A stretch of DNA of 64,000 bases. Source: Sinomonas cyclohexanicum. Lineage in GTDB: Bacteria > Actinomycetota > Actinomycetes > Actinomycetales > Micrococcaceae. The notes beneath the pieces are model-generated. The model saw only the letters and a program-made list of their open reading frames with translations, was not told where the DNA came from and did no database searches. A program made the translations under genes and the position numbers. The stretch is taken from the NCBI RefSeq assembly GCF_020886775.1, contig NZ_AP024525.1, positions 62,001 through 126,000 on the forward strand, in the 5' to 3' direction. How positions within the stretch are numbered: the stretch's first letter is position 1; every line of letters starts with the position of its first letter. Below are positions 14,180 through 29,611 of this stretch, piece after piece.

Positions 14180-14581
14180 ATGCCCCCTTCGAACGCACCC
14201 GCCTCCGTTCCCTCGGCAGTCCGGATTGACTCCTGGCTGTGGGCGGTGCGCGCCTTCAAGACCCGCTCGGCCGCGACGGCTGCATGCCGTGCTGGGCATA
14301 TACGGCTCAACGGCAACCCGGTCAAGGCGTCCCAGACCGTCGTGCCGGGGGACACGATCCGCGTGCGGCAGTCCGGATTCGAGCGGATCCTCGAGGTCCA
14401 CGTGCTGATCGTCAAGCGCGTGGGCGCGGAGGCGGCGTCCAGGTGCTACACCGACCACACGCCCGAGCGGCCGCCCGTACCGTTCCTCGGCCTCCCCCAG
14501 CGCGATAGGGGCTCCGGGCGGCCCACCAAGAAGGACCGCCGGGAGATGGAGCGGCTGCGCGGGGAGACCCGGGGCGACTGA
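14180..14581 (+). CDS. S4-domain RNA-binding protein, Hsp15-like
   Basis: A 133-aa cytoplasmic protein with an N-terminal S4 fold (VRIDSWLWAVRAFKTRSAAT, then GHIRLNGNPVKASQTVVPGD) and a basic C-terminal tail (GRPTKKDRREMERLRGE). This is the layout of Hsp15/HslR, which binds stalled 50S subunits carrying tRNA. ATG 14180 is preferred over ATG 14168 because the -10-like TAAGAT (14164-14169) overlaps the latter; the leader would be only a few bases. Confidence 0.87.
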   Translation: MPPSNAPASVPSAVRIDSWLWAVRAFKTRSAATAACRAGHIRLNGNPVKASQTVVPGDTIRVRQSGFERILEVHVLIVKRVGAEAASRCYTDHTPERPPVPFLGLPQRDRGSGRPTKKDRREMERLRGETRGD

Positions 14582-14711
14582 GGCGGCGCGGCCTCTCCGG
14601 TAGGAAGTCACCCGGCACACTCTTGCCGCCACCTGTCTCGGGTCTTGGAGACACCGCCCGGCGTCCGCCTCGAGGCGCGGCCAGCGACCCAGTCTCGGGC
14701 AGCCCCCGGTG

Positions 14712-15989
14712 TCAGGACAGGGCCGGGGCCGGGACAGGGGCGGGAGCGGTCCGGAGGTCAGCGTCGAGGAGGTTGGCGGCCAGGGCCGGCGCCAGGCCTG
14801 GTGTGAGGGGAAGGCGCGGGACGAGGAGGCAGTGCATGAGGTGATAGATGTCCGCTTTGCCGTCCCAGACGGATGAGGACACGGAACCGTTCTCGTCGAG
14901 TTCCTGCCACCAGGAGCCGTTCTCATAGTCAATGAAGTGCTCGCGGACGTGGTCCCAGATGCGCTCGTACCACGCGGCATAGGCGGGGTCGCCTGTCGCC
15001 TTGTAGAGCGCTGCTGCGCCGCCGATGGCCTCGACGGGCACCCACCGGATCCGCGAGGTCACGACCGGCTGGCCCTGCCAGTCGACGGAGTAGACGAATC
15101 CGGGGTGGCCGTCGGGCTGCCAGGCATCCCGGCAGGCGGCATCGAAGAGCCCGCGCGCGTCGTCGAGCAGCCATGAGGGCGCGTCCATGCCTCGTGCTTC
15201 CAGGCCGGCCTTCACGTGCAGGAGGAGACGGGCCCATTCCGTCCAGTGGCCGGGGGTGCTGCCGTAGGCCCGGAACCGGTCTGCTCGGTGGTCGGTGTTG
15301 TACTCGGGCAGCGGGTTCCAGTCCGGGTCGAAGTGCTCGAACACGCGGTAGCTGTTGTTGCGGGCGAACCGGTGGATGAGGACTTCTGCGATGTGCAGCG
15401 CGCGTTCGAGCCATCGGGTCTCGCCGGTGACGTCGGTGACGATGAGGTATGCCTCCACCGAGTGCATACTGGCATTTCCGCCGCGGTATGCCTCGGTCTG
15501 GGTGAACTCGCGGTCCCAGGAGTCGAAGCACATGTTCGCATCGTGGTCCCAGAACTTGCCGTCGGCGATGGCGAGCGCGTCCTCCAGGAGTTCCGTCGCG
15601 CCGGGCCGGCCGGCCGCGACGGCGCTGGCTGCGGCGAGCAGCACGAAGGAGTGCGCGTAGCCGGATTTGGCGGTCTCAACAGGCCCCTCGTCATTGACTG
15701 ACGCGAACCAGCCGCCATGGTCGTCGTCGTGGAAGGCGGTGCGCAGGGCGTTGATCCCGTGGTCGACGAGTGTATTGGCTCCGGGGCGCCCCATGAGCCC
15801 TGCGAGGGCGAAGACATGGGTCATCCGGGCCGTGATCCACAGCTGTGTGGGCTTCTCGGCCACGACGTTGCCGTTGTTGTCAAGCCATCCGAAGCCGGTG
15901 TGGACCCGGGAACGCCGGCCGAATTCGAAGATGCGGTCGGTTTCGGCCTCGAGCCAACGTGTGTGGGCGGCGTTGTGGAGCCAAGTCAT
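14712..15989 (-). CDS. yihS: Sulfoquinovose isomerase (YihS-like, AGE family)
   Basis: A 425-aa (alpha/alpha)6-barrel enzyme that converts sulfoquinovose to sulfofructose, the first cytoplasmic step of sulfo-EMP. It matches recalled E. coli YihS along its length, for example RWLEAETDRIFEFG, TGFGWL, DYENGSWWQELD and VWDGKADIYHL. Arg55, His176, His248, Glu251 and His383 fall at the residue numbers I recall for the enterobacterial active site. ATG 15989 follows GAGAGGAC. It is the last gene of the nine-gene minus-strand operon. Confidence 0.93.
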   Translation of the reverse strand: MTWLHNAAHTRWLEAETDRIFEFGRRSRVHTGFGWLDNNGNVVAEKPTQLWITARMTHVFALAGLMGRPGANTLVDHGINALRTAFHDDDHGGWFASVNDEGPVETAKSGYAHSFVLLAAASAVAAGRPGATELLEDALAIADGKFWDHDANMCFDSWDREFTQTEAYRGGNASMHSVEAYLIVTDVTGETRWLERALHIAEVLIHRFARNNSYRVFEHFDPDWNPLPEYNTDHRADRFRAYGSTPGHWTEWARLLLHVKAGLEARGMDAPSWLLDDARGLFDAACRDAWQPDGHPGFVYSVDWQGQPVVTSRIRWVPVEAIGGAAALYKATGDPAYAAWYERIWDHVREHFIDYENGSWWQELDENGSVSSSVWDGKADIYHLMHCLLVPRLPLTPGLAPALAANLLDADLRTAPAPVPAPALS

Positions 15990-16066
15990 GGTGTTTGTCC
16001 TCTCGCTTGGTGATGGTGTTGGATTGTCAACTTCTTCGCACTGCCACGCTGCCAGATGTGCGCATG

Positions 16067-16807
16067 TCAGGTGAGCGCAATGACGCCCTTGAGGAGGAGC
16101 ATGATGGCGCCGAGGAACGCAAGTACGATCACCGCGGCTCTGCTCACCCTTGCCGGGATCCTCGGTCCGAGGAGGTTGCCGAGGACGATGCCGCTGACGA
16201 GCGCAGCACCGCATGAGAGCCATTGCCACGCGTCCAGGGCTGGCAGCGAGTGCTTGGCCGCGAGCGAGGCCAGGCCCACGCAGGCGAAGTAGAGCTGGAT
16301 GCTGGTTGCGAAGGCCACGTGCTTCCAGCGGGTGGCAAGGGCATAGGCGGTGACGGCCGGGCCGCCCACCCCTGCTGTGACGTTCATGAATCCGGAGATG
16401 AGCCCTGCGGCAGCGGCCCCGAACCTCCCTTGGAGGAAGGAGGCCTCGCGCACGGTCAGGCTCGCGGCCAGCGCGAGGATGACCATTGTCCCTATCAGGA
16501 TGGACAGGACGTTGGATGGGACGTTCGCGGCCACCCAGGCACCGGGTATCACGGCCGCGACAGCGGGGATCATCATCGCCAGCACACGCCGGTACTCAAC
16601 CTGCCGGAACACCTGGGCGAAGACGAGCAGGGCCGTCAGGGTGCCGAAGACATTGACCACGATGACTCCGTTGAAGGGGCCCAGAATCATCACGAGGAAG
16701 GGCGAGGCGACGAGGGCGAAGCCGACACCGCTGATGCGCTGGGTCGAGGCGCCGAGGAAGGTCGCTCCTGACAGCGCGGCGAGGGACCAGAGATAGCCGG
16801 GGTTCAC
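16067..16807 (-). CDS. TauE/SafE family membrane exporter, probable sulfolactate exporter
   Basis: A 246-aa protein with about eight membrane helices. It has the family pattern LSGATFLGASTQRISGVGFALV near the start and the repeat SGFMNVTAGVGGPAV near residue 140. TauE/SafE members export sulfite or sulfonates. Set just after the sulfolactaldehyde dehydrogenase gene (GTG 16807 lies 5 bp past its stop), export of sulfolactate is the natural role. No clear Shine-Dalgarno sequence is seen, so translation is probably coupled. Confidence 0.87.
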   Translation of the reverse strand: MNPGYLWSLAALSGATFLGASTQRISGVGFALVASPFLVMILGPFNGVIVVNVFGTLTALLVFAQVFRQVEYRRVLAMMIPAVAAVIPGAWVAANVPSNVLSILIGTMVILALAASLTVREASFLQGRFGAAAAGLISGFMNVTAGVGGPAVTAYALATRWKHVAFATSIQLYFACVGLASLAAKHSLPALDAWQWLSCGAALVSGIVLGNLLGPRIPARVSRAAVIVLAFLGAIMLLLKGVIALT

Positions 16808-16812
16808 GGGTG

Positions 16813-18237
16813 TCAGGGGCGCCAGGCGAGGTACTTGGGCTCGGTGAATTCCTCCATTCCCAGGCTCGCGCCCTCCCGGCCCAGGCCCGACTGCTTGACC
16901 CCGCCCATCGGTGCGAAGGCAACCGACGGGAGCGGGTCGTTGATTCCGACGATGCCCGCCTCGAGGGCCTCGGCGATGCGCCAGCAGCGCCCCGCGTCCT
17001 TCGCGAACACATAGGCGGCCAGGCCCATCTCCGTGTTGTTCGCGCGCGAGAGGAGCTCGGCCTCGTCCTTGAAGGGGAAGGCGGCGGCCACGGGGCCGAA
17101 GACCTCCTCGCGCGCCAGCGCGGCCTCTTCGGGGACGTCGGTGAGCAGCATGGGCCGGAGGAAGGAGCCCTGCGCGGGGACGTCGCGCCAGGAAGTTCGC
17201 TCCTTCGCGCCGAGTCCGAGGGCTTGGTCGACCATGCGCTGGACGCCGGCGACGCTGTCCTGGTCGATCATGGGCCCTAGGTCGGGCACGGGTTCGGCCG
17301 AGCCGTCGCCGATGGAGAGGGCATCGAGCCTGGCCGCCAGCCGGGTCACGAAGTCTTCGAAGATGCCCTCTTGGACGAAGAATCGGTTGGCTGCAACGCA
17401 GGACTGGCCGGTGTTGCGGGTCTTGGCCAGGACGGCGGCGTCGACGGCGGCTTCGAGATCCGCGTCGTCGAAGACGATGAACGGGGCGTCCCCGCCGAGC
17501 TCGAGCAGGGGGCGGACGACGCGCTGCGCGGCCGTCGCCATGATCTGCCGCCCCACGCCGGTGGAACCGGTGAAGGTCACGACGCGCACGGCGGGGTGGG
17601 CCAGCAGCGTTTCGGTGATCTCCCGCGCGGGGCCGTGGACGAGGTTGAGCACGCCGGGGGGCAGGCCGGCGTCGTCCAGCGCCCGGACGAGCTCTGCGGC
17701 TGCGAGCGGGGCGCGCTCCGAGACGCGGGCGACGACCGTGCACCCGGCCGCCAGTGCGGGGGCGAGCTTGCGAGCCTGCAGCGAGCAGGGGAAGTTCCAC
17801 GAGGTGAGGGTCAGGACGACGCCGGCCGCGCTCCGGGTGGTGAGGTGGCGCCGGGCAGGGTCCTCGCTGGGGATCACGGTTCCGAGCGGTCTGCGGGCCT
17901 CTTCGGCGAACCACCGGAGGTATTCGATCGAGAAGCTGATCTCGCCCAACGCCTCGGGGAGCCGCTTGCCGGCCTCTGCGGCGAGGATCGCCGCGATGGC
18001 CTCTCGCCGCTGCAGGAGGAGGTCCGCGGCGCGGAACAGGATGTCCGCGCGCTCGCGAGGGGGCGTCTTGGACCAGGTGCCGAAGGCCGCGGCGGCGGCA
18101 TCGGCGGCTTCCGCGGCCAGGGCCGCGTCACCCCAGCAGACCGTTCCGACGGTGTTCCCCGTGGCGGGGTTGCGGACCGGCCTGCGATTGGCGAGTCTGC
18201 GCCACTGGCCGTTGATGAGGGTGGTTTCTTCTGTCAT
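16813..18237 (-). CDS. Sulfolactaldehyde dehydrogenase (GabD-like aldehyde dehydrogenase)
   Basis: A 474-aa NAD(P)-dependent aldehyde dehydrogenase. The general base is Glu246 (LELGGD) and the nucleophile Cys280 (NTGQSC). In this operon its substrate should be sulfolactaldehyde from the aldolase, giving sulfolactate. The cofactor loop reads VVARVSERAP where most relatives have KPSE/KPAE, so the usual Lys is Arg171; TSWNFP also replaces PWNFP. ATG 18237 follows a weak AAAGG. The family could otherwise be succinate-semialdehyde dehydrogenase; the setting decides. Confidence 0.85.
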   Translation of the reverse strand: MTEETTLINGQWRRLANRRPVRNPATGNTVGTVCWGDAALAAEAADAAAAAFGTWSKTPPRERADILFRAADLLLQRREAIAAILAAEAGKRLPEALGEISFSIEYLRWFAEEARRPLGTVIPSEDPARRHLTTRSAAGVVLTLTSWNFPCSLQARKLAPALAAGCTVVARVSERAPLAAAELVRALDDAGLPPGVLNLVHGPAREITETLLAHPAVRVVTFTGSTGVGRQIMATAAQRVVRPLLELGGDAPFIVFDDADLEAAVDAAVLAKTRNTGQSCVAANRFFVQEGIFEDFVTRLAARLDALSIGDGSAEPVPDLGPMIDQDSVAGVQRMVDQALGLGAKERTSWRDVPAQGSFLRPMLLTDVPEEAALAREEVFGPVAAAFPFKDEAELLSRANNTEMGLAAYVFAKDAGRCWRIAEALEAGIVGINDPLPSVAFAPMGGVKQSGLGREGASLGMEEFTEPKYLAWRP

Positions 18238-18297
18238 GGCAGGAGGAGCCTTTCGTGGTGGCGGTTCAGGCCGAGCGGGGCTGCCGGTTCCCGGCGG

Positions 18298-20577
18298 TCA
18301 TGCGTCATGGTCGACGACGTCGAACGAGGCCGGGTCGGCGATCGAGCCGTCGAAGCCTGTGAAGGCCGGGATCGGTCCGAGGTCGTGGCCGAACCGGTGC
18401 ACGACCCAGGGCTGGTCCGCGAGGTCCTCGGTGTTCCGGGTGTCCTCGGGGACGGGGAGCGTCGGGATGCTTGCCCCGGGCCTGACCAGGACCGGCATGG
18501 CGTCGAGGGGGAAGGTGGCGGTGTGGAAGCCCGCCTCGTAGGCCGTTCCGGTGTGGAGGTCGGTCCATGTCCCCTTGGGGACATAGAAGGACCGGGATGC
18601 CGGTGCGGAGGAGTCGTCGAAGATCGGGATCACCAGGAGGTCGTCCCCGAGCATGAACTGCGAATCGATGCCCACGGCGGCCGGATCCTCGGGGAAGGAA
18701 AGGTGGAGCGGGCGCATCATCGGAAGGCCGTCCCTGACGGAGGCCGTGGCGGCCTGCCAGAGGTAGGGGAGGAGTCCGTAGCGGCGCCGGATCCACGTCC
18801 TTGCGATCTTGAGCGCCTCGGGGCTGAACGCCCAGGGCTCTCTCGGCCGTAGCCCGTGGGCGCGCATGAGGGGCGAGAACGCCCCGAACTGGGTCCACCG
18901 GACGTAGAGCCCGTCGGTGAGCTCCGGGCCGAAGAATCCGCCGATGTCGTGACTCCAGAACCCGGGTGCGCCGAGCGCGTAGGACAGGCCCCCGCGCAGA
19001 GTCGCCTGCATGCCGGCGACAGTCGATTCGGCGTCCCCTCCCCACTGGCCGGGATAGCGGTGCGACCCGGCCCATCCCGAACGGCCCCACACGAGCGGGG
19101 TTCGGCCGGTCGCCTCCGCGATGGCCTCGCTGGTGGCGCTGTTGTAGCGCAGGGGGTAGAGGTTGTGATGGTGGGCCGCGGGCGTGTCCTCGGCGAGGAC
19201 GCCGTCTGCGGGGAACCCTTCGCCGAAGTCGGTCTTGAAGACGGCGACGCCGTCATCGAGGAAGGCCCGGTGCTGTTCCTTCCACCAGGTCCGGGCCTGT
19301 GGATTGGAGAAGTCGATGAGGGCTCTGGGCCGCCCATCGGGCGTGGGCGTGCCTCCAAGGTAGGCGGTGGCGCCGTGGAGGGTCTTGACGAAGAATCCCC
19401 GCTCCTGAAGTTCCGCGTACAGGGGGGACTTCGGGTCCACGTAGGGCAGTTCCCAGACCGAGAGCCGCTTGCCCTCGGCGGCTAGGTCGGCGACGAAGTC
19501 CTTCCTCTTCCCGAAGCGATCCTCGTTCCAGATGAAGTCGGTGTTGAGCCGGTCCACGACCAGCCAGTCGGGATCCAGGTGCAGCACGTCGCACGGGATG
19601 GAGTGGGCGTTCATGGACCGGGCGACCTCGAGCATTTCGCCGCTGCTGTGGTAGCGGCAGCGTCCCATCCAGTAGCCGAAGGCCCACAGGGGAGGTCGTT
19701 GGGAATGCCCCGTGAGGGCTGTGTAGTCGGCCAGGCGCTGGGCCGGCTCCGGGGAGACGAAGACGAAGAGGTCGAGCGCGTCGTCGTCGAGCTCGAGCGA
19801 GAGTACGCTGGGGCGTTCGTGGCCGACGTCGGCAGTGACCGTGGCACCGGTGTTGAGGAAGCCCGCATATCCGGCCGTCGAGTGCCAGACCGGTACGGGC
19901 TTGTACGCCATGCCGGTCCCGGTGCCGAGCGCGTCCTCGGATCGGAGTGTGAGCTTCTGGCCGTTCTTGACGAGTCTGCCGAACTGCTCGCCGAAGCCCA
20001 GGATGTCCTCCGAGGCTGCCAGTTCGAAGCTGACCGCCGTCTTGCCGTCGTGGTGCAGGGCTGGGGGCGCCATGGGGAAGCCCGCGACCTGGCGGAGCCG
20101 TTCGGCGGTTCGCAGGACGGTTCGGCCGTCACGGTCCTCGACGCGGAGGCTGAACGGGGAGCGGGCGACGACGACGGTGAACTCGTCGCCGGAGAGGCGG
20201 GCCTCCTGGCCGTTGAGGGCGGCCTCTGCAGGCACTGGTCCGTCAGCGGTGACGATCCCGAGCCAGCCTGGGCGCTCGTCGAAGACGCGGTGGCCCTCCG
20301 GCGCGAGCACGATCCGTGCGGTCCTGGGGCCGTGGGCCGTTACGCGGAGGCGCCACGGCGTGGGGGAGAGCTCGGGCCGCTGGAGTGAGGGGAGGTTCGG
20401 CATGCTCACCTCGATCCCCTGGGCCTCCAGGGTCTCGCCGGTGATCCAGCCCGGCATGGGGCTCAGCTCGATGGCAGGGAGCGCCGTCATGGCCAGGTCG
20501 AGGTGGCCGCCGTCGGTGGAGCCGCCTGAGGCGTGGCGGAGGATCACGGTGTCCGAGGGGCCCGTGGGATGGGACAT
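18298..20577 (-). CDS. GH31 alpha-glycosidase, probable sulfoquinovosidase of YicI-like build
   Basis: A 759-aa cytoplasmic GH31 enzyme without a signal peptide. The nucleophile is Asp450 (FKTDFGEGFP) and the acid/base Asp515 (WGGDAES). The setting suggests release of SQ from SQ-glycerol or other SQ-glycosides. Overall it reads more like alpha-xylosidase YicI than YihQ. By-eye alignment keeps an Arg (343) at the place of YihQ Arg301, but Thr346 and Phe548 (HDIGGF) replace Trp304 and Tyr508. Specificity is therefore uncertain. ATG 20577 follows AAAGG. Confidence 0.88.
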   Translation of the reverse strand: MSHPTGPSDTVILRHASGGSTDGGHLDLAMTALPAIELSPMPGWITGETLEAQGIEVSMPNLPSLQRPELSPTPWRLRVTAHGPRTARIVLAPEGHRVFDERPGWLGIVTADGPVPAEAALNGQEARLSGDEFTVVVARSPFSLRVEDRDGRTVLRTAERLRQVAGFPMAPPALHHDGKTAVSFELAASEDILGFGEQFGRLVKNGQKLTLRSEDALGTGTGMAYKPVPVWHSTAGYAGFLNTGATVTADVGHERPSVLSLELDDDALDLFVFVSPEPAQRLADYTALTGHSQRPPLWAFGYWMGRCRYHSSGEMLEVARSMNAHSIPCDVLHLDPDWLVVDRLNTDFIWNEDRFGKRKDFVADLAAEGKRLSVWELPYVDPKSPLYAELQERGFFVKTLHGATAYLGGTPTPDGRPRALIDFSNPQARTWWKEQHRAFLDDGVAVFKTDFGEGFPADGVLAEDTPAAHHHNLYPLRYNSATSEAIAEATGRTPLVWGRSGWAGSHRYPGQWGGDAESTVAGMQATLRGGLSYALGAPGFWSHDIGGFFGPELTDGLYVRWTQFGAFSPLMRAHGLRPREPWAFSPEALKIARTWIRRRYGLLPYLWQAATASVRDGLPMMRPLHLSFPEDPAAVGIDSQFMLGDDLLVIPIFDDSSAPASRSFYVPKGTWTDLHTGTAYEAGFHTATFPLDAMPVLVRPGASIPTLPVPEDTRNTEDLADQPWVVHRFGHDLGPIPAFTGFDGSIADPASFDVVDHDA

Positions 20578-20583
20578 AGTGGA

Positions 20584-21399
20584 TCAGCCTTTCACAGCGC
20601 CCGCGGTCATGCCGGCTACGAAGAATCGCTGGAGGAATACGTAGGCCACGACGACGGGGATGGACGCGAGGATGACGCCCGCGAACAGCAGCGGGTAGTT
20701 GGTCTGGAACTCGCCCTGGAAGCTCAGCAGAGCCAAGGGCAGTGTGCGCTTGTCGGGCGATGAGATGAACAGGAGCGGGTACAGGAGGTCGTTCCAGTGC
20801 ATGACGAAGAGGAAGATCCCGGTGGCCGCGATCGAGGGCATCGACAGTGGCACTGCGACCGCGTAGTAGGTCCGGAAGGGCCCGGAGCCGTCTACGGTGG
20901 CCGCCTCGAAGAGGTCTGAGGGCAGAGTCCTCATAAAGCCGCCGAGGATGAAGACGGCTACGGGGAGCGTGACGACGATGTTGATCAGGATCAGGCCGAG
21001 CCTGCTGTCCAGCAGGCCGAGCTGCTGGAAGAGGACGTACTGGGGGATCATGTTCGCCTGCGCCGGCACCGACATCCCCAGCACGATGAACCCGTAGATC
21101 GCCCAGCCCTTCCATCCTCGGATCCTGGCCACGCCGTAGGCCGCCAGCGAGGCTATGAAGAGGGTGAGCGTGACTGAGGTGAGTGTCACCATGGTGCTGT
21201 TCAGGAACGCGGCACCCAGATTCTGGCCCGTGAGCGTCTCGGCGTAGTTGTTCAGGCTCAGGCTGCCCGGCGGGGCGAAGGGATTGGCGAAGAGCTCCGG
21301 GGTGGTCTTGAAGGTGCCGAAGAGGACGACGAGGAGCGGAATGACGATCAGCAGGCCGTAGACGGCCAGCACTGCATTCTTGGAGAGCCTGGCGATCAT
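20584..21399 (-). CDS. Carbohydrate ABC transporter permease, MalG-type
   Basis: A 271-aa inner-membrane permease with six helices. The ATPase-docking EAA loop is DLFEAATVDGSGPFRTYYAVAVPLS near residue 185. ATG 21399 follows AAAGG at 8 bp, the same leader type as its neighbours. With the other permease and the binding protein it forms an importer, presumably for SQ or SQ-glycerol. No ATPase gene is present here; a shared MsiK-type ATPase elsewhere is usual in actinobacteria. Confidence 0.92.
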   Translation of the reverse strand: MIARLSKNAVLAVYGLLIVIPLLVVLFGTFKTTPELFANPFAPPGSLSLNNYAETLTGQNLGAAFLNSTMVTLTSVTLTLFIASLAAYGVARIRGWKGWAIYGFIVLGMSVPAQANMIPQYVLFQQLGLLDSRLGLILINIVVTLPVAVFILGGFMRTLPSDLFEAATVDGSGPFRTYYAVAVPLSMPSIAATGIFLFVMHWNDLLYPLLFISSPDKRTLPLALLSFQGEFQTNYPLLFAGVILASIPVVVAYVFLQRFFVAGMTAGAVKG

Positions 21400-21402
21400 G
21401 GC

Positions 21403-22398
21403 TCAGCCTTTCTGTACGAGTCGGAGGACCCTGCGCAGCGTGAAGGCCATGACTCCGATGAAGAGCATGAAGAGGATGGACTCCGCCGCCGCGTAGCCGA
21501 ACTGCGAGTTGGCGAACGTCGTGTAGATGCGGGTCGACAGGATGTCCAGGCCCGACCCGGGCGGGTTGCCGCCCAGGCCGATGATCAGGTCGAAGGCCTT
21601 GAACGACTGGATAGTGGTGTACGCGACGACGATCGACGTGGCCGGGGCGATGAGGGGCCAGGTGATGAGCCGGAACTGCTTCCACTTTCCGGCACCGTCC
21701 ACCTCAGCTGCCTCGTAGAGCTCAGCGGGGATGGCCTGGAGCCCTGCGATGAACACGACGATCATCTGCCCCGTGTGGGCCCAGGTCTGTGTCAGGGCCA
21801 CCCAGAAGATCGCGCTGCCCGGGTCGCCGAGGAACGACGATCCCGGCAGGCCCACCGCATGGAGGCCCTGGTTGATCAGGCCGAAATTCGGGTCGTACAT
21901 GAACTTCCACACGAAGGCCACCGAGACCGAGGAGAGGATGGTCGGGAAGAAGTACAGCGCCCGCAGGAAGGTGTTGACCTTCGTGTTCTTCACGAGGAAG
22001 ACCGCCAGAAGCAGGGAGAGGACGGTCTGGGCGATGACGACGACCGCCATGAACTTCAGGTTGTTGGTCAGGGCGTTGCTGAAGAGCAGGTCGCCGGTGA
22101 AGGCCCGCACGAAGTTGGCGATGCCGAGGGTGCTGTAGTCCGCGCTGTACCCGTTCCAGTCGGTCACCGAGTACTGCACGGCCTGGAGGGAGGGGATCGC
22201 GAAGAACAAGGTGAACAGCACCAGCGCCGGGAGCGGGAAGAGGAACATCGCAAGCGGTGTCCTGGTCGCCCGCCTCCAGCGGCGCGCCGCGTCGAAGGGG
22301 CGGCGGCGACCGGGCCCTTGGGCGGTGCCGGGCCCAACGGTCCGGGGTCCTGCCGGGACGCGATTGCGCCGCAGTTGGAGGTTAATTGGTCTTGACAC
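21403..22398 (-). CDS. Carbohydrate ABC transporter permease, MalF-type
   Basis: A 331-aa permease with an Arg-rich cytoplasmic N-terminus (about 50 residues) and six helices. The EAA loop is ELYEAAEVDGAGKWKQFRLITWP near residue 225. The only good start is GTG 22398, inside the last codons of the binding-protein gene (17-bp overlap). It lies 3 bp before the second permease gene. Confidence 0.9.
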   Translation of the reverse strand: MSRPINLQLRRNRVPAGPRTVGPGTAQGPGRRRPFDAARRWRRATRTPLAMFLFPLPALVLFTLFFAIPSLQAVQYSVTDWNGYSADYSTLGIANFVRAFTGDLLFSNALTNNLKFMAVVVIAQTVLSLLLAVFLVKNTKVNTFLRALYFFPTILSSVSVAFVWKFMYDPNFGLINQGLHAVGLPGSSFLGDPGSAIFWVALTQTWAHTGQMIVVFIAGLQAIPAELYEAAEVDGAGKWKQFRLITWPLIAPATSIVVAYTTIQSFKAFDLIIGLGGNPPGSGLDILSTRIYTTFANSQFGYAAAESILFMLFIGVMAFTLRRVLRLVQKG

Positions 22399-23683
22399 GC
22401 TGATCCACGACCTTCTGGGCGTCCGCCGCCGCCTGTGCCGGATCGGTCCCGCTCAGTACGCGGACCGCTGCTGCCTCGACCGCGTGCTCCATGTCCAGAT
22501 CCGTGAACTGGTAGCGCGGCGCGAGGATCGTCTTCTTCTCTAGCCAGGGCTGGAGCCTCTTGAGGTCCGGGTTCGTGTACTGGATGCCCTTGACGGGGGA
22601 GAACTGGGCGGTGTCATTGGCATAGGTCCCGGCGTTCGCCGGTTCGCTGAGGAACTGGAGCCAGGCCAGGGCCGCGCCCTGGACCTTCGATGCCGAGTTG
22701 ATTCCGAGGATGAAGGTGGCGTTGTAGGTGCCCTCGTACTTGGCCTTGCCCTTCGCTGCCGTGATGGGCGGGGCCAGGTCGATCGGGAATTTCGCGCCGA
22801 GCGCCCGCACGGCTGCGATGTGGTAGCTGCCGGTGGCCAAGATTGCGGCCTTGCCCGTGGCGAAGAGCTGCTCAGCGGGCTCTACGGCGGTACCGGCCGA
22901 GTTGGGCTGCACGAAGGGAGCGAGCTGCTGGTAGTACTTGAGCATCTGGACGAACCAGTCGTCCGTGCACTTGTACTGGCCGGACTGGATCTTGGCGCAC
23001 ATGTCGTCCGAGGGCGCGACGTTCATGATCATCGAGTTGAAGAGCTGACCTGCGTTGCCGGCGTCCGCCCCGGGGAAGGCGATCGGCGTGATCCCCTTTG
23101 ACTTGATCGCCTCGAGCATGGAGAGGTAGGAGTCCCAGTCGGTGGGGATGGTGCTGATCCCGGCCGAGTCAAGAATGTCAGTGTTCGCGATCGGCATGGG
23201 GAGCACGATCTGGTACGGGTATCCGTACTGCTTGCCGTTCGCGGCCCCGCTGCTGATGAGGTTGGCGGTGTACTTCTCGGTCAGGCCGCTGCTGCTCAGG
23301 TCTGTGAAGAGGCCGGACGAGACGAAGCTGTCGAACTGGGAGCCGCGGAAGGCCGGTGCGACGTCGCCGATTGCCCCGGAGCGCATGCGCTGGAGGGCCT
23401 GGGCCTGGTAGTCCGTGGAGGTGGAGATGTCCTGAGCGACCTCGATGCCCGGGTTCGCCTGCTGGAACTGTGTGATCAGCTTGGCGAAGACGTCCTTGTC
23501 CTCCGCGCGCCAGTGGGCGAAGGAGACCTTGCCGGTCTTGTTGGCGGTGTTGAGCGAGCTGGCGGCAGCGGGTTTCGTGGATCCCGGGCCGGCGCAGGCC
23601 GCGAGCGATGCCGCGGTGCCGGTGACAGCGAAAAGCTGGAGCAGTCCGCGGCGGCTCATGGGGGTTGTCTTGAAGTCGGACAT
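22382..23683 (-). CDS. Extracellular solute-binding lipoprotein, family 1
   Basis: A 433-aa binding protein. The leader has RR near residue 8 and the lipobox SLAAC with Cys near 30, so it is a lipid-anchored receptor. The mature part shows VSFAHWRAEDKDVFAKL and NPGIEVAQD, typical of sugar-binding family 1. Its ligand is presumably SQ or an SQ-glycoside because of the operon. ATG 23683 follows AAGGAG at 11 bp; an upstream ATG at 23713 is less likely. Confidence 0.9.
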   Translation of the reverse strand: MSDFKTTPMSRRGLLQLFAVTGTAASLAACAGPGSTKPAAASSLNTANKTGKVSFAHWRAEDKDVFAKLITQFQQANPGIEVAQDISTSTDYQAQALQRMRSGAIGDVAPAFRGSQFDSFVSSGLFTDLSSSGLTEKYTANLISSGAANGKQYGYPYQIVLPMPIANTDILDSAGISTIPTDWDSYLSMLEAIKSKGITPIAFPGADAGNAGQLFNSMIMNVAPSDDMCAKIQSGQYKCTDDWFVQMLKYYQQLAPFVQPNSAGTAVEPAEQLFATGKAAILATGSYHIAAVRALGAKFPIDLAPPITAAKGKAKYEGTYNATFILGINSASKVQGAALAWLQFLSEPANAGTYANDTAQFSPVKGIQYTNPDLKRLQPWLEKKTILAPRYQFTDLDMEHAVEAAAVRVLSGTDPAQAAADAQKVVDQRVKTN

Positions 23684-23786
23684 GGTTGGTGCAACTCCTT
23701 GTTTCTTCATCAATCGATGACGGGGATGCCCAGGGGGCCCGCTGCGGTTCTGGGCTGGGGGCGGAGGCGCGCGTCGGGCCGCGGCT

Positions 23787-24689
23787 TCACGCCTTCACGT
23801 GGGTGTCGACGACATCGCAGAGACGCTGGAGCCTGCGCACGGCGTGGGTGCGCAGGTCCTCTGCGATGTCGGGGCTGGCGATCGAGGAGGCCCAGACGGC
23901 GCGCCCGGCCAGGAATCCGGATGCACCCTCTTCGCAGGCCCAGGCGACGGCCTCCGGGAAGACGTCCTGGGGCACGCCGGAGGACAGCACGACCCAGGGT
24001 CCGTCGATGGTCCGGCTCAGCTGCCGGCAGTCCGCGCGCACCTCGTCCTCCGCGGCCTGCCCGCGGTGGGGGACCTCGGCCTTGTACAGGTCGGCCCCGA
24101 GGCGTCCGAGCTCCTTCGCTGCTGCCAGGACTCCCGCGTTCCAGTCCCACTCGCTCCCGTCGAGGGCCTTCCGGGACACCGGCTCGATGATGCTGACCAG
24201 CCCGGCGTTCCGGCAGAGGTCGATGAACTCTTCCGTCATGGCGATCCGCTCCGCCGCTCCGCCGTCCGGGCGGTAGAGGACCAGGAGCTTCATGGCCACC
24301 GCCCCGCTGGCCCGGAGCGCGGCGGGGTCGAGGGCGCGGTCGATGTTGACCGTGCCGACGACCTCGCCGTAGGCCGGCTCGAAGTGGTCCGCCGCCGCGA
24401 TGAGGCCGCAGCCGGGGGCGACAACGCCCTGAGCGATGGCCTCCTCGAGCGCGAACTGGCGGTCGATCAGGACGGCGGACGCATGGGGGGTGAGGATGCG
24501 CGCGGCCTCAAGCTTGAAGTCCCGCACCTGCTCGTCGGTGACGTCGGTGTCCTGATGCTCGGCCATCATGTTGCGCAGCGCCTCACGCTGGTCCACGGCG
24601 AGCATGGCGAAGGCGCCCGAGGGCCGCCGGAGGTCGGCGAGCGTCGCTGGTGCCGTCGAGGGAGCGGGGGCGGAGTACTCAGAGGACAA
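23787..24689 (-). CDS. yihT: 6-deoxy-6-sulfofructose-1-phosphate aldolase (YihT-like)
   Basis: A 300-aa class I aldolase that splits SF-1-phosphate into DHAP and sulfolactaldehyde. It matches recalled YihT in SGAFAMLAVDQREALR, KLLVLYR, SIIEPV, GADLYKAEVP with the Schiff-base Lys203, and GASGFLAGRAVW with Arg263. The related LacD (tagatose-bisphosphate aldolase) is the alternative, but the operon favours YihT. The start is TTG 24689 behind AAGGAG; it overlaps the kinase gene by 11 bp. Confidence 0.92.
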   Translation of the reverse strand: MSSEYSAPAPSTAPATLADLRRPSGAFAMLAVDQREALRNMMAEHQDTDVTDEQVRDFKLEAARILTPHASAVLIDRQFALEEAIAQGVVAPGCGLIAAADHFEPAYGEVVGTVNIDRALDPAALRASGAVAMKLLVLYRPDGGAAERIAMTEEFIDLCRNAGLVSIIEPVSRKALDGSEWDWNAGVLAAAKELGRLGADLYKAEVPHRGQAAEDEVRADCRQLSRTIDGPWVVLSSGVPQDVFPEAVAWACEEGASGFLAGRAVWASSIASPDIAEDLRTHAVRRLQRLCDVVDTHVKA

Positions 24690-25629
24690 GGTCTTCTCCT
24701 TGGATGGATGTGGCTGTCGAGTCCGCGACGTGGCGGATCGCCTCGTCGTGGTCGGGGATTCGGGACCTGCCGTCGATGCCGCGGCAGGAAAGGGACGCGA
24801 CCGTGGTTGCGTAGGCGAGCACCTGGTCCAGGCCGCTCAGCTCCCCGCGTTCGGATCGGGCAAGGCCCGCGAGCAGGGCGCCGTGGAAGACATCGCCGGC
24901 CCCAAGAGTGCTGGCGATCTCGGCGGCGGGGGGAGTGGCGCGGACAAGGCTCTCCGAGCCTTCCTCGACGCCGAAGCTGCCTTCGCCGCCGCCGGTGGCC
25001 ACGGCGATCCCGGCGCCGTCGGCCAGCGCGCGTCGGAGCAGCGCCAGGGTGTCGTTCGGGCCCCCCGGCGTTCCGTACCTCGCCTGGAGGGCCGGGATCG
25101 TGGGAGCGTACAGGGCCGTGCCCGGCTGCGTGTATCCAGGGATCGGGTTGCCGGCGTCGACCGAGAGCCGAGGCCGGTGCACCAGCTGGCCGAGGTGCCG
25201 GTGTACGGGCGCCCAGCCGAGCTGGTCGACATGGACCCAGTCCGCCGCGCCGATCAGGGACTGTGCGGTGGGGTTGGAAGCGAGATCGATCTCCGGGCCC
25301 GGGCGATTGACGATCGCTCGGGTCCTGTGTGGGCCATCGATGATGACCAGACTGCGCCCCGAGCGTTCCCCGGGGATCCGCGCGACGCCCGAGACGTCCA
25401 CGCCTTCGGCTGCGAGCCCCTCGACGATCCGCTCGCCCTCCGCGTCATCGCCGACTGCGCTCACAATGGCGGCGTCCATTCCGAGCCGTGCTGCCGCGAC
25501 GGCGGCGGTCGCGGCTGGGCCGCCACCGGCGAAGAGGACGTCCTGGGCGACGATCCGCTCGTCTGCCTCGGGGAACCTGTCAACGAGTGCAATGGCGTCT
25601 GCCGTTGCCACTCCTACGAAGACCAACAA
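24679..25629 (-). CDS. yihV: Sulfofructose kinase (YihV-like, PfkB family)
   Basis: A 316-aa PfkB sugar kinase that phosphorylates sulfofructose at C1. The signature FAGGGPAATAAVAAARLG (34-50) is as in recalled YihV, and the C-terminal STLGAGDVFHGALL carries the catalytic Asp. TTG 25629 is chosen because GAGAGGA lies 5 bp upstream and the peptide then starts MLVFVGVATAD, as in YihV. It is the first gene of the nine-gene operon, behind the divergent promoter region shared with the DeoR gene. Confidence 0.88.
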   Translation of the reverse strand: MLVFVGVATADAIALVDRFPEADERIVAQDVLFAGGGPAATAAVAAARLGMDAAIVSAVGDDAEGERIVEGLAAEGVDVSGVARIPGERSGRSLVIIDGPHRTRAIVNRPGPEIDLASNPTAQSLIGAADWVHVDQLGWAPVHRHLGQLVHRPRLSVDAGNPIPGYTQPGTALYAPTIPALQARYGTPGGPNDTLALLRRALADGAGIAVATGGGEGSFGVEEGSESLVRATPPAAEIASTLGAGDVFHGALLAGLARSERGELSGLDQVLAYATTVASLSCRGIDGRSRIPDHDEAIRHVADSTATSIQGEDLVL

Positions 25630-25683
25630 GGGAATCCTCTCTCGGGCCGTGTCGACTATGACTTCCGTCACATGAAAGAATCT

Positions 25684-25733
25684 AAACATCGTTTGTTGGA
25701 AAGTCAACACCCTGAGGGCGGAACTGATAATAT
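25684..25733. promoter_or_regulatory. Divergent promoter/operator region of the SQ operon
   Basis: Two small inverted repeats lie side by side: AAAC-ATC-GTTT (25684-25694) and TGTTG-GAAAGT-CAACA (25694-25709). TAATAT (25728-25733) is a plus-strand -10 candidate for the DeoR gene. The AT-rich patch is unlike its surroundings and is the likely binding site of the DeoR protein. Confidence 0.5.
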
Positions 25734-25772
25734 TGGGACAGACATCGGACGCCGAGGCGGTGGGAGATCGTC

Positions 25773-26600
25773 GTGGCGTCCCTTCCCGAGGGGGTAGCAG
25801 TGGCTGCTGGAGCCGAAGCAGGGGCGAGGGCCTCGAAGGAGAGCGCCCGCGAACGCCAGGACCAGATCCTGCGTCAGCTGCGCAGTTCGCCGTTCGTCTC
25901 GGTCTCCGAGCTCGTGCAGAACCTCGGCGTCTCCGACATGACCATCCGCCGTGACCTCAAGACCCTCTCCGCGCGGGGGGAGGTCAACGTCGTCCACGGT
26001 GGCGCGTCCCTCCCCTACGGGACGCCCGGCACGGTGGACTTCTCCCGCCGTGCCAAGAAGCTCTCCGAGGCCAAGCGCAAGATTGCCCAGGCCGCTCAGG
26101 CGTACATTCCCGAACGAGGGGTGATCGCAGTAGACGCCGGCACGACTGCCTTCGCGGTCATCCACGAGATGTCACCCGAGTTCCGGGGCACCGTGATCTC
26201 GCACTCGATCCCGGTCCTGCAGCACATGCTCTCCATGCCGAATGCGAGGGTGCTCGGCCTCGGGGGCGAGCTCCTCATCGAAAGCCAGGCCCTGGTCGGC
26301 CCTCGAGCCGTCGAGGGCCTCGCCGGCCTCAAGGCTGCCGTCCTGTTCCTGGGGGCCGCCGCCGTCGATGCCGACGGCGTGTATGTGGCCACTGATATGG
26401 AGCGACCGGTCAAGATGGCGCTGATCGACAGTGCCTCGCTCGTTGTCCTCGTCGCCGACCACGAGAAGTTCTCCGGGTCGGCTGCAGTCAGGCTCGTCGA
26501 TTTCTCAGCCATCGACGTCGTGCTCACCGATGCGCCTCCGCGCCAGGACGTCAGTCTGCGGCTGAAGGCTGCGGGCACCGAGGTCGTAGTGTGCCGATGA
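25773..26600 (+). CDS. DeoR family regulator of the sulfoquinovose operon (YihW-like)
   Basis: A 275-aa regulator. The N-terminal winged helix (about 25-80) has VSVSELVQNLGVSDMTIRRDLKTL, and the DeoR sensor domain has VIAVDAGTTAFAV and VGPRAVEGL. It is divergent from the kinase gene, so it most likely represses the SQ operon until an SQ-derived sugar phosphate appears, as CsqR/YihW does in E. coli. GTG 25773 is used; GTG 25800 behind GAGGGGG is a good alternative. Confidence 0.88.
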   Translation: MASLPEGVAVAAGAEAGARASKESARERQDQILRQLRSSPFVSVSELVQNLGVSDMTIRRDLKTLSARGEVNVVHGGASLPYGTPGTVDFSRRAKKLSEAKRKIAQAAQAYIPERGVIAVDAGTTAFAVIHEMSPEFRGTVISHSIPVLQHMLSMPNARVLGLGGELLIESQALVGPRAVEGLAGLKAAVLFLGAAAVDADGVYVATDMERPVKMALIDSASLVVLVADHEKFSGSAAVRLVDFSAIDVVLTDAPPRQDVSLRLKAAGTEVVVCR

Positions 26601-26720
26601 AGCGATCACTGATGGCCCTCAGCTGACGCCTGCTGTCCGCGGGTAAGGGGCGGCCCGCGGCGGAGTCAAGCCCCCGGGTATGGTCCGGTTTACCTGCTCG
26701 CCGATCACGCCAGAGGTGCT

Positions 26721-27745
26721 TCAGGCATCGAGAGCCAGGAGAGCCCGGGCCGTAGCCTCGTCGAGGACGAGTTCGGTAGCGAGGCGCGCGTTGAGCGCCC
26801 CGCGCAGGGCACGGGCCTTCGAGGGGCCGGAGACGACGCAGAAGCGATGTTTGACGCTGCGGAGGAGCGCGTGGTCGGTCTCGCGGTCGCCCGTTCGTTG
26901 AGAGCGATCCCCTCCGAGCTTCCATCCTCTCGGAAGAAGACGGTTGCGACATCGCCCACGACCCGCTCCTCAGCGAGGGACCGGAGGTCGGTGGGGTCCA
27001 GGTAGCCCCCGGTGTAGACGTGGCTTGGGACGTCCGCGTCAAGAGCGCCTATTCCGAACACCGCGAGGGACATCCGGGCCTGGAGGGCGAGAACACGGCG
27101 TACGCTGCGCTCGCTCCACATGAGCCGCTTGGCCTCCGCGCGGTCGAAGAAGGCCGGGACGGGGAACTCCTCGACGGCGGCGTCATAGGCAGCCGCGAAC
27201 CGTCGGATGATCTCGCTTGCGTAGCCGAGTCCCATGGTCTGGGTGTTGGCAGCGCCGTTGAGCTGGACGACGGTGCTGCTGTGGGTCGACTTTCGATTGA
27301 GGTAACGGCTCATCGCGGTGAGCGTGGAACCCCACGCGACCCCGATCACGGCCTCGGACTCGACGAACGGCGTGAGGGTGCGCGCAGCGTACATCGCGAC
27401 TCTGTCGAGTGTCTCCGTCTCGTTGAGGTGTGAGGGGTGGGGGACCACGTTGACGCGGACGCGATAGCGGCGCGAGATGGCCGATTCGAGCTCGGCCGAG
27501 GATTCCAGGGGGTTCCGGATCTGGATCTGCACGAGCCCGGTCTCCCGGGCGAACGCGAGCAGCCGCGAGACTGTCGAGCGCGATGTCCTGAGTTCCCGCG
27601 CGATGGCATCCATCGTGAGGTCTTGCAGGTAGTAGAGCTGCGCCGCAAGCAGCGCATCGCGCTGCTTGGGCGAAATGGGCGTTTGTGCGGATCCCCCGTC
27701 GCCGAGGAGCTCGGAATCCGGGCCGGACATGGGCATGCACGCCAT
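26721..27745 (-). CDS. SorC family sugar-binding transcriptional regulator; C-terminus probably frameshifted
   Basis: The N-terminal HTH (LTMDAIARELRTSRSTVSRLLAFAR) and most of the SorC sensor domain (VIGVAWGSTLTAMSRYL, FGIGALDADVPSHVY) are intact. After GIALNER the reading frame turns into a Ser/Arg-rich tail ending at 26705. The other frame gives DRETDHALLRSVKHRFCVVS and continues to TGA 26721, a normal SorC end. One extra base in the run CCC at 26890-26892 restores it. It faces glpD. The start is uncertain (27745, 27736 or 27730); ATG 27763 would lie within the operator. Confidence 0.78.
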
Positions 27746-27748
27746 TCT

Positions 27749-27762
27749 TGCACATTTGTGCA
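27749..27762. promoter_or_regulatory. Candidate SorC operator (inverted repeat)
   Basis: The arms TGCACA and TGTGCA are spaced by TT. It lies in the short gap between the divergent SorC and glpD genes, in an AT-rich stretch, and could control both. Confidence 0.5.
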
Positions 27763-27834
27763 TAGTTCTTGAATATCCTCTCAGGCCGGTCAAACAATGG
27801 TGCGAGATCCCCGGCCCGCCCAAGGAGGAAACCT

Positions 27835-29574: not shown

Positions 29575-29611
29575 TCCCCGGGTCGGCATTTCATGAGATG
29601 GAGGAACCAGA

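What the first reader, a model, noticed from the sequence alone, without database searches (positions are those of the whole stretch)
14712..26600. Complete sulfo-EMP operon for sulfoquinovose with its own ABC importer and a sulfolactate branch
Seen: nine minus-strand genes with short gaps or overlaps encode YihV-, YihT- and YihS-like enzymes, a GH31, an aldehyde dehydrogenase, a TauE exporter, a binding protein and two permeases; a DeoR gene is divergent. Known: E. coli sulfo-EMP uses YihS, YihV and YihT, reduces sulfolactaldehyde to DHPS and imports with an MFS carrier. Inference: here sulfolactaldehyde is oxidised to sulfolactate and exported by the TauE protein, giving NAD(P)H and DHAP, and uptake is by an ABC system without its own ATPase.
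Basis: partly seen in the sequence, partly recalled or inferred. Interest (0 to 1): 0.8.

Follow-up and report, generated by a model that had tools for sequence, protein, structure and literature searches.

The report
Actinobacterial sulfoquinovose operon with unusual glycosidase
This is a gene cluster for eating the plant sulfo-sugar sulfoquinovose and excreting sulfolactate, a pathway type already known from soil Arthrobacter, but its sugar-releasing enzyme belongs to a lineage not recognised among the known sulfoquinovosidases in the papers I could read.

Summary
Nine minus-strand genes (14712-25629) and a divergent DeoR gene encode YihS, YihT and YihV orthologues, a GabD-type sulfolactaldehyde dehydrogenase, TauE, a binding lipoprotein, two permeases and a GH31. 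The sulfo-EMP-to-sulfolactate reading is well supported by homology and synteny, but not new: Kaur et al. 2022 isolated Arthrobacter that do this with clusters of the same make-up except for the glycosidase. No ATPase gene lies in the cluster; the genome has one MalK/UgpC-type ATPase elsewhere. The unexpected part is the GH31. It is not a YihQ-type sulfoquinovosidase: it groups with YicI-like enzymes, keeps 1 of 5 QQRWY residues, and has lost the YicI xylose-pocket residues. Its clade (at least 55% identity) was found in 27 actinobacterial loci: 21 beside YihT, 5 in sulfo-ED-like clusters, 1 on a short contig with partly similar genes. In 41 YihT-sampled loci, 24 carry the NAD-dependent GH188 sulfoquinovosidase, 14 this GH31, 3 neither, none both. 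I infer a third sulfoquinovosidase lineage; no activity has been tested. A conserved operator-promoter, TGTTGACTTTCCAACA, lies between yihV and deoR. Overall: a new variant of a known kind.

The parts
14712..15989 (-). yihS-type sulfoquinovose isomerase (425 aa)
   Evidence: 585 bits to E. coli YihS 2rgk; 58.4% identity; 76-79% to the YihS of the 23 GH188-type loci that carry YihS
16017..16032 (-). second, weaker operator-like site (3 mismatches) just upstream of yihS
   Evidence: 2 sites with up to 3 mismatches in the window against 0.06 expected; one search shows its position
16067..16807 (-). TauE/SafE-family permease, probable sulfolactate exporter
   Evidence: PF01925 E 1.5e-18; TauE and SLADH both present in 24 of 24 GH188 loci and 17 of 27 GH31-sampled loci
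16813..18237 (-). GabD/SlaB-type sulfolactaldehyde dehydrogenase
   Evidence: SSADH-like, best NCBIfam 474 bits, below the curated cut-off; W147-N148-F149, R156, E246, R274, C280 match the spacing of RlGabD residues in PMC10599462
18298..20577 (-). GH31 glycosidase of a YicI-related clade found in SQ-type clusters; probable sulfoquinovosidase
   Evidence: no signal peptide seen by eye in the translation
20584..21399 (-). ABC permease (MalG/GlcU type)
   Evidence: PF00528; best NCBIfam GlcU 144 bits, below cut-off
21403..22398 (-). ABC permease (UgpA/MalF type)
   Evidence: PF00528; best NCBIfam UgpA 103 bits, below cut-off
22382..23683 (-). sugar-binding lipoprotein (SBP_bac_1)
   Evidence: PF01547; lipobox LAAC seen by eye in the translation; SmoF only 26 bits
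23787..24689 (-). yihT-type sulfofructose-1-phosphate aldolase
   Evidence: 262 bits to YihT 7ag7/1to3 against 73 for tagatose 1,6-diphosphate aldolase
24679..25629 (-). yihV-type sulfofructose kinase (probable start TTG 25629)
   Evidence: best PDB match sulfofructose kinase 7ag6, 87 bits, next 65; start
25679..25707 (-). predicted promoter of the operon, TTGACT-17-TAGATT
   Evidence: 2 promoter-like sites found in 14400-27900, 0.6 expected; the other, divergent one (+ 25704-25731) faces deoR
25694..25709 (-). operator TGTTGACTTTCCAACA, probable DeoR binding site
   Evidence: exact match; 0.06 sites expected at up to 3 mismatches in the window; conserved in relatives
25773..26600 (+). deoR-family regulator, divergent
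   Evidence: PF00455 and PF08220; 28% to E. coli CsqR

Best explanation
The cluster imports and degrades sulfoquinovose (SQ) glycosides, most likely sulfoquinovosyl glycerol, by sulfo-EMP with a sulfolactate end. A binding lipoprotein and two permeases, probably powered by a shared MalK/UgpC-type ATPase encoded elsewhere, bring the glycoside in. A cytoplasmic GH31 of a lineage distinct from YihQ cleaves it to SQ plus aglycone. YihS isomerises SQ to sulfofructose, YihV phosphorylates it, and YihT splits it into DHAP and sulfolactaldehyde. The GabD-type dehydrogenase oxidises sulfolactaldehyde to sulfolactate, which TauE exports. A DeoR repressor acting at TGTTG-N6-CAACA over the -35 region controls the operon. 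Shown: gene content, homology, synteny, conserved operator sequence, and the GH31/GH188 either-or pattern in the sampled loci. Inferred: all catalytic activities, the substrate of the importer, the ATPase sharing, the export by TauE and the repression.
For: Core enzymes. SLADH motif. GH31: 27 of 29 confirmed loci of the pattern scan form a clade at 55% identity or more. Of these 27, 21 have YihT, 5 have sulfo-ED-type genes (4 of the 5 with SLADH and TauE), and 1 is an 8.6-kb contig with YihP-, TauE-, YihU- and mutarotase-like genes. YihT-sampled: 24 GH188, 14 GH31, 3 neither, 0 both of 41. The genome has a single GH31 and no close GH188 (best match 28% identity). ATPase: one protein over the OB_MalK cut-off in the genome, which also passes the NCBIfam UgpC cut-off. 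Operator.
Against: No activity, growth or expression data. The GH31 lacks four of five QQRWY residues, so sulfonate binding is unproven. No mutarotase gene was found although a retaining GH31 would release alpha-SQ. The SLADH arginines also occur in succinate-semialdehyde dehydrogenases. The binding protein has no strong similarity to SmoF. 22 of the 24 GH188 loci come from one genus (g9), so the either-or counts are not independent, and apart from the window's genome only stretches of about 20 kb were examined for GH188. The scan selects for two short conserved stretches of the GH31. The operator (up to 1 mismatch) is missing from 5 of 21 YihT-bearing GH31-sampled loci and from the 6 without YihT.
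Confidence: 0.82

Rival explanations
1. The sulfo-EMP reading is right, but the GH31 is not a sulfoquinovosidase: it acts on another alpha-glycoside (xyloside or glucoside) and is carried along, SQ being taken up free.
For: Closest solved relatives are 5f7c and YicI, not YihQ; 31% to YicI against 29% to YihQ; groups with YicI-like enzymes in the tree; QQRWY mostly absent.
Against: The clade's loci are nearly all SQ-type clusters, of two different core pathways, and in YihT-sampled loci it stands where others have GH188. The YicI xylose-pocket residues F277, C307 and F308 are replaced by R, P and D in all members readable at those columns (28, 27 and 27); of 30 outgroup GH31s, 30 keep F at the first, 27 C at the second and 27 F at the third (3 have D). 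R343 aligns with YihQ R301 with the same spacing to the conserved Trp-Asn.
Confidence: 0.22
2. An ordinary sugar operon (mannose/tagatose type: mannose isomerase, PfkB kinase, LacD-like aldolase).
For: NCBIfam names the isomerase profile D-mannose isomerase (518 bits, below its 600 cut-off) and the aldolase profile tagatose 1,6-diphosphate aldolase (153 bits, below 184).
Against: PDB matches rank the sulfo-enzymes first by wide margins for YihS and YihT; SLADH and TauE are linked; a GH188 sulfoquinovosidase is present in sister clusters.
Confidence: 0.04
3. The pathway is sulfo-EMP, but the end product is not exported as sulfolactate by TauE (sulfolactate is further degraded, or TauE moves sulfite or another sulfonate).
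For: TSUP proteins are poorly characterised (stated in PMC8873060). I did not search the genome for sulfolactate lyase.
Against: SLADH and TauE occur together in 24 of 24 GH188 loci and 17 of 27 GH31-sampled loci; the former type resembles AK04, which excretes sulfolactate.
Confidence: 0.15

Closest known systems
Actinobacterial sulfo-EMP cluster of Arthrobacter sp. AK04/AK01 (Kaur et al. 2022, PMC8873060)
   Same: YihS, YihV, YihT, SLA dehydrogenase, binding protein plus permeases, TauE (AK04), no YihU, no YihR
   Different: Arthrobacter use GH188 (called IolG there, later SqgA); here a GH31 inside the operon takes that place
E. coli yih sulfo-EMP operon
   Same: YihS/YihV/YihT chemistry, DeoR-family regulator
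   Different: DHPS end product via YihU, YihO/YihP carriers, YihQ-type GH31 and YihR mutarotase; none of these was found among the window's ten genes
YihQ-type GH31 sulfoquinovosidases
   Same: GH31 family, catalytic Asp pair, an Arg at the R301 position
   Different: Other QQRWY residues replaced; separate branch related to YicI
E. coli YicI alpha-xylosidase (GH31)
   Same: Closest characterised branch in the tree; alignable over residues 184-701
   Different: Pocket residues F277/C307/F308 replaced by R308/P336/D337; extra residue N345 in the loop before the conserved Trp
GH188 NAD-dependent sulfoquinovosidase SqgA
   Same: Occupies the same functional slot in sister clusters
   Different: Unrelated family (Gfo/Idh/MocA) and oxidoreductive mechanism
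Sulfo-EMP2 and hybrid clusters (SqvD/SftI isomerase)
   Same: Most GH31-type sister clusters use an SftI-like isomerase instead of YihS
   Different: The window cluster itself uses YihS and YihT

Membership tests
Actinobacterial sulfo-EMP with sulfolactate end (Kaur 2022) | YihS, YihV and YihT orthologues in one cluster | tested here: met
Actinobacterial sulfo-EMP with sulfolactate end (Kaur 2022) | SLA dehydrogenase in place of SLA reductase | tested here: met
   no reductase family among the ten proteins scanned
Actinobacterial sulfo-EMP with sulfolactate end (Kaur 2022) | ABC-type importer and TauE permease | tested here: met
Actinobacterial sulfo-EMP with sulfolactate end (Kaur 2022) | No YihQ-type sulfoquinovosidase; GH188 instead | tested here: not met
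   No YihQ-type enzyme in the genome, but no close GH188 either (best match 28%); a GH31 of another lineage is present
Actinobacterial sulfo-EMP with sulfolactate end (Kaur 2022) | Growth on SQ with excretion of sulfolactate | not testable with these tools
   needs culture
YihQ-type GH31 sulfoquinovosidase | Catalytic nucleophile and acid/base Asp | tested here: met
   D450 and D515 align with YihQ D405 and D472 (roles recalled)
YihQ-type GH31 sulfoquinovosidase | QQRWY sulfonate-binding residues (motif recalled; A. tumefaciens variant KERWY recalled) | tested here: not met
   C or Y (by alignment), D, R, T/C, F: only the Arg is kept. The four class members found with YihQ keep Q, Q, W and Y, and three of four the R
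YihQ-type GH31 sulfoquinovosidase | Groups with YihQ in a tree | tested here: not met
   SQ-linked clade joins YicI-like enzymes (support 1.0), YihQ-type separate (support 1.0); midpoint root
YicI-type alpha-xylosidase | Xylose-pocket residues F277, C307, F308 (recalled) | tested here: not met
   R, P, D
GH188 sulfoquinovosidase | Gfo/Idh/MocA oxidoreductase close to 8qc2 | tested here: not met
   Query with 763 bits to 8qc2 finds 15 matches of 25-36% identity in the genome, best 28% at 76 bits
Sulfo-EMP2 | SqvD, SqiK, SqiA enzymes | tested here: not met
   Isomerase, kinase and aldolase are PF07221, PF00294 and PF01791

The most novel reading that the evidence does not exclude
Actinobacteria have a third, separately evolved sulfoquinovosidase: a YicI-related GH31 clade that remodelled its minus-one pocket (F277 to Arg308, CF to PD, an inserted Asn345 beside Arg343 at the R301 position) to hold the sulfonate. 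It serves both sulfo-EMP and sulfo-ED clusters in place of GH188 and YihQ, and surveys that count any PF01055 gene as a GH31 SQase would have merged it with YihQ.
Probability: 0.68. Interest if true: 0.6.

Novelty: new variant of a known kind. Interest (0 to 1): 0.45.

Why it matters
Sulfoquinovose is among the most abundant organosulfur compounds (PMC12890257 abstract, search listing), and the glycosidase is the gateway step. The JACS 2023 paper speaks of two known classes of sulfoquinovosidase (passages). A third, recognisable by a short motif (GRCRYH...DPDWLxxDRLN) and by its gene context, would extend predicted SQ-glycoside use to Streptomyces, Kribbella, Pseudonocardia, Saccharopolyspora, Nesterenkonia and others, and would be a case of repeated invention of sulfonate recognition inside one glycosidase family. 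The conserved operator also gives a regulon marker.

Tried and rejected
Considered and rejected: ordinary mannose/tagatose operon (profile margins); sulfo-EMP2 (families differ); YihQ-type SQase for the GH31; a GH188 elsewhere in the genome making the GH31 redundant.

Led nowhere: the genome-contig scan with YihT alone found no confirmed relative. The AlphaFold model of the GH31 has mean pLDDT 69.9 and is below 50 at 302-307, 340-346 and 493-584 among other segments, which include the pocket, so I drew nothing from it and ran no fold search. PF07944 in the own genome: no match. Genus comparison shows sorC-glpD-glpK kept together in 12 of 12 relatives examined (of 14 in the sample), but the genes left of the cluster were not found beside them there, so no clean insertion site could be shown. 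Papers PMC6161063 and 10.1016/j.jbc.2023.103038 are not held, so the CAZy GH31 subfamily scheme could not be checked.

Rows dropped before counting: the census leaves out the window itself, L231 (49% YihT; nothing else of the set found) and the 3 + 16 weaker YihT-like hits (36-44%); 18 of those 19 were looked at, where no YihS or GH31 of this clade was listed. L167 and L168 (27% and 23%) were left out of the 27. L166, cut by its contig end, was left out of the tree, and its GH31 piece fell below the census threshold. The YihT-sampled and GH31-sampled sets overlap in organisms and are not independent. Of the GH31 matches, 30 with loci served as outgroup.
Full report
Observation. The window (70.7% G+C) lies in a single-contig 4.41-Mb genome. 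Families were assigned with Pfam and NCBIfam and PDB sequence searches. YihS scores 573 to 585 bits to YihS chains and about 146 or less to other N-acylglucosamine 2-epimerase relatives. YihT scores 262 bits to sulfofructosephosphate aldolase against 73 for tagatose-bisphosphate aldolase. YihV's best match is sulfofructose kinase (87 bits; the next is 65). Identities to the E. coli proteins are 58.4, 46.4 and 33.4%. Starts needed correction for YihS, TauE, SBP and YihV.

Pathway. The aldehyde dehydrogenase is GabD-like. Its W147-N148-F149, R156, E246, R274 and C280 have the spacing of Trp162-Asn163-Phe164, Arg171, Glu261, Arg289 and Cys295 that were proposed for the sulfolactaldehyde dehydrogenase RlGabD (PMC10599462, passages seen; positions). 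Equivalent arginines occur in human succinate-semialdehyde dehydrogenase (same passages), so this is agreement, not proof. TauE (PF01925) lies beside it. No SLA reductase family was found among the ten proteins, and no mutarotase with a YihR query in the window. The chain SQ, sulfofructose, sulfofructose-1-phosphate, DHAP plus sulfolactaldehyde, sulfolactate follows from the named families and is inferred.

Transport. The binding protein is a lipoprotein by its lipobox (by eye). It has only weak similarity to the SQ-glycerol binder SmoF (26 bits), so its ligand is inferred from context. No ATPase gene is in the cluster. The genome holds one protein over the OB_MalK cut-off, and it passes the NCBIfam UgpC subfamily cut-off (479 bits against 432).

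Known before. Kaur et al. 2022 (PMC8873060; parts 1-3 of 4 read) isolated Arthrobacter AK01 and AK04, which grow on SQ and excrete sulfolactate. Their clusters have YihS, YihV, YihT, a GabD homologue, ABC importer genes and, in AK04, TauE. Thus the pathway variant is already described. They reported no sulfoquinovosidase gene in those clusters; the glycosidase was later shown to be the NAD-dependent GH188 enzyme SqgA (PMC10755693; abstract and passages). Interchange of isomerase and aldolase genes is also in print (PMC9594981 passages; PMC10991401 passages, which name SqvD in Streptomyces sp. WMMB 322, the source of my locus L151; the passages I saw do not mention its glycosidase).

Distribution. 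YihT of this kind is in 1 of 15 genomes of the genus, so the cluster is a sporadic acquisition or retention. In a family sample, 26 of 395 genomes have it at 64% identity or more (29 of 395 at E 1e-30). In an order sample, 26 of 396 have a match at E 1e-30, of which 11 are at 58% or more. In a class sample, 10 of 389 have a match at E 1e-75. All these counts include the window's own genome. YihQ-type enzymes are rare here: 4 of 389 class genomes at E 1e-90, not the window's own.

The GH31 is not YihQ-like. NCBIfam scores it 427 bits to the YicI profile and 214 to the YihQ profile, both below their cut-offs. The best PDB matches are 5f7c and YicI; YihQ has 138 bits. In a FastTree tree of 63 sequences (27 of this clade, 30 other GH31s of the order, YicI, and 5 YihQ-type), this clade is monophyletic (support 0.87). 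It joins 27 of the other GH31s plus YicI with support 1.0, while the YihQ-type group is separate with support 1.0 (midpoint root). The 30 other GH31s are at most 37% identical to the window's, and members of the clade at least 55%.

Its pocket. The catalytic Asp pair is kept (D450, D515). Of the QQRWY sulfonate-binding residues of YihQ (motif recalled) only the Arg is kept, as R343. An extra residue, N345, is present in all 27 members readable there and absent from all 30 outgroup sequences. It gives R343 the same distance to the following Trp-Asn as R301 has in YihQ. YicI F277, C307 and F308, which shape the xylose pocket (recalled), are replaced by R308 (28 of 28 members; F in 30 of 30 outgroup sequences), P336 and D337 (27 of 27 readable; outgroup C 27 and I 3, F 27 and D 3). 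An outgroup R occurs at column 343 in 7 of 30, so R343 alone is not diagnostic. A caution: the scan that supplied the 27 loci searched for WAFGYWM and N[TC]DFIWN, so N345 is partly conserved by selection. In the 10 sequences found through YihT instead (window plus 9), R308, P336, D337, R343 and N345 are likewise invariant. This reads as a pocket rebuilt for an anionic C6 substituent; that is inference, and the structure model was too poor there to help.

Context of the GH31. The scan of genome contigs (one genome for each of 84,980 species) with an alignment of the clade gave 113 pattern matches and 29 confirmed loci, 27 of them actinobacterial at 55% identity or more. Of these 27, 21 have YihT in the locus. 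Five others (L156-L159, L162) have a dehydratase (PF00920), an SDR dehydrogenase, a KDPG-type aldolase, an SMP-30 lactonase and an MFS carrier, and four of these five also have SLADH and TauE. That is the sulfo-ED set (Pfam for L157, L159 and L162, the rest by tblastn). The last (L155, an 8.6-kb contig) has YihP-, TauE-, YihU- and aldose-epimerase-like genes. None has GH188 or a YihQ-type enzyme in the stretch held, at the thresholds used. In a separate sample of 297 order genomes, 6 have the clade at E 1e-120, and all 6 carry it in a YihT cluster.

Either-or with GH188. In 41 loci sampled by YihT at 55% or more (window not counted), 24 have GH188, 14 have this GH31, none has both, and 3 have neither. 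The 3 with neither also lack the kinase, isomerase, importer and SLADH at these thresholds. The GH188 query is the known enzyme (763 bits to 8qc2). 22 of the 24 GH188 loci are from one genus (g9) and 2 from another (g31), so the count overstates independence; and a GH188 outside the 17-20 kb stretch would have been missed. The window's own genome was searched whole: no close GH188 (best 28%) and no other GH31. YihS with this GH31, as in the window, is rarer than the SftI-like isomerase with it: 2 against 12 in the YihT sample, 3 against 17 in the GH31 sample. The SftI-like assignment rests on one NCBIfam hit (283 bits, cut-off 700).

Regulation. TGTTGACTTTCCAACA lies at 25694-25709 on the minus strand, exact. 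Two sites with up to 3 mismatches are in the window against 0.06 expected; the second, weaker one is just before yihS. The site is present with at most 1 mismatch in 16 of 21 YihT-bearing loci of the GH31 sample and in 12 of 14 GH31 loci of the YihT sample. GH188 loci have a variant (19 of 24 at 2 mismatches, not always at the same place; none closer). The 6 YihT-free GH31 loci have none, and 0 sites with up to 2 mismatches occur in 531,751 background bases. Ruania (L086), whose cluster begins with yihS, has two TGTTG-N6-CAACA sites near the start of yihS. The palindrome overlaps a predicted promoter TTGACT-17-TAGATT. A DeoR operator is the simplest reading.

Literature limits. I found no description of this GH31 clade in searches (CC-licensed PubMed Central only) or in the passages read. 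The SLADH survey in PMC10599462 marked neighbours as 'Family GH31 SQase (PF01055)', i.e. by Pfam family, which would not separate this clade from YihQ. The GH31 subfamily paper and the SQase structure paper are not held, so prior recognition as a subfamily cannot be excluded.

Verdict. The glycosidase makes it a new variant and gives a directly testable prediction.

Noticed in passing
window 26705-27763 (-), change of frame near 26,880: The SorC/DeoR-type regulator beside glpD keeps its frame over about the first 293 residues, but its C-terminal part matches the two genus relatives compared (L128, L131) only in another frame: a broken gene or a sequencing error.
   Followed up: partly
window 26705-31150: sorC, glpD and glpK are found together in 12 of 12 genus relatives examined, none of which has YihT; here the SQ cluster abuts them. 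Glycerol is the other product of SQ-glycerol. L164 (Humibacillus) also has glpK- and glpD-like genes next to its SQ cluster.
   Followed up: partly
e.g. L089:17289-18488 (+); L142, L144, L146, L147, L148, L150, L152, L160, L163, L164: An M24-metallopeptidase-like gene is found in 10 of the 27 GH31-sampled loci, in 8 of them between GH31 and SLADH; none was seen among the window's ten genes; role unknown.
   Followed up: no
L055-L070, L085, L094: More distant YihT-like aldolases (35-44%), 13 of these 18 loci with both ABC permeases and 11 of 18 with a DeoR regulator but none with YihS, suggest another sugar pathway using the same aldolase family.
   Followed up: no
L156-L159, L162: Sulfo-ED-type clusters in Amycolatopsis, Saccharopolyspora and Prauserella carrying the same GH31 clade.
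   Followed up: partly
L154:1808-12500: Cryobacterium breve has an E. coli-like set (YihR, YihU, YihT, YihS, YihP, YihV relatives) with the actinobacterial GH31 instead of YihQ.
   Followed up: no
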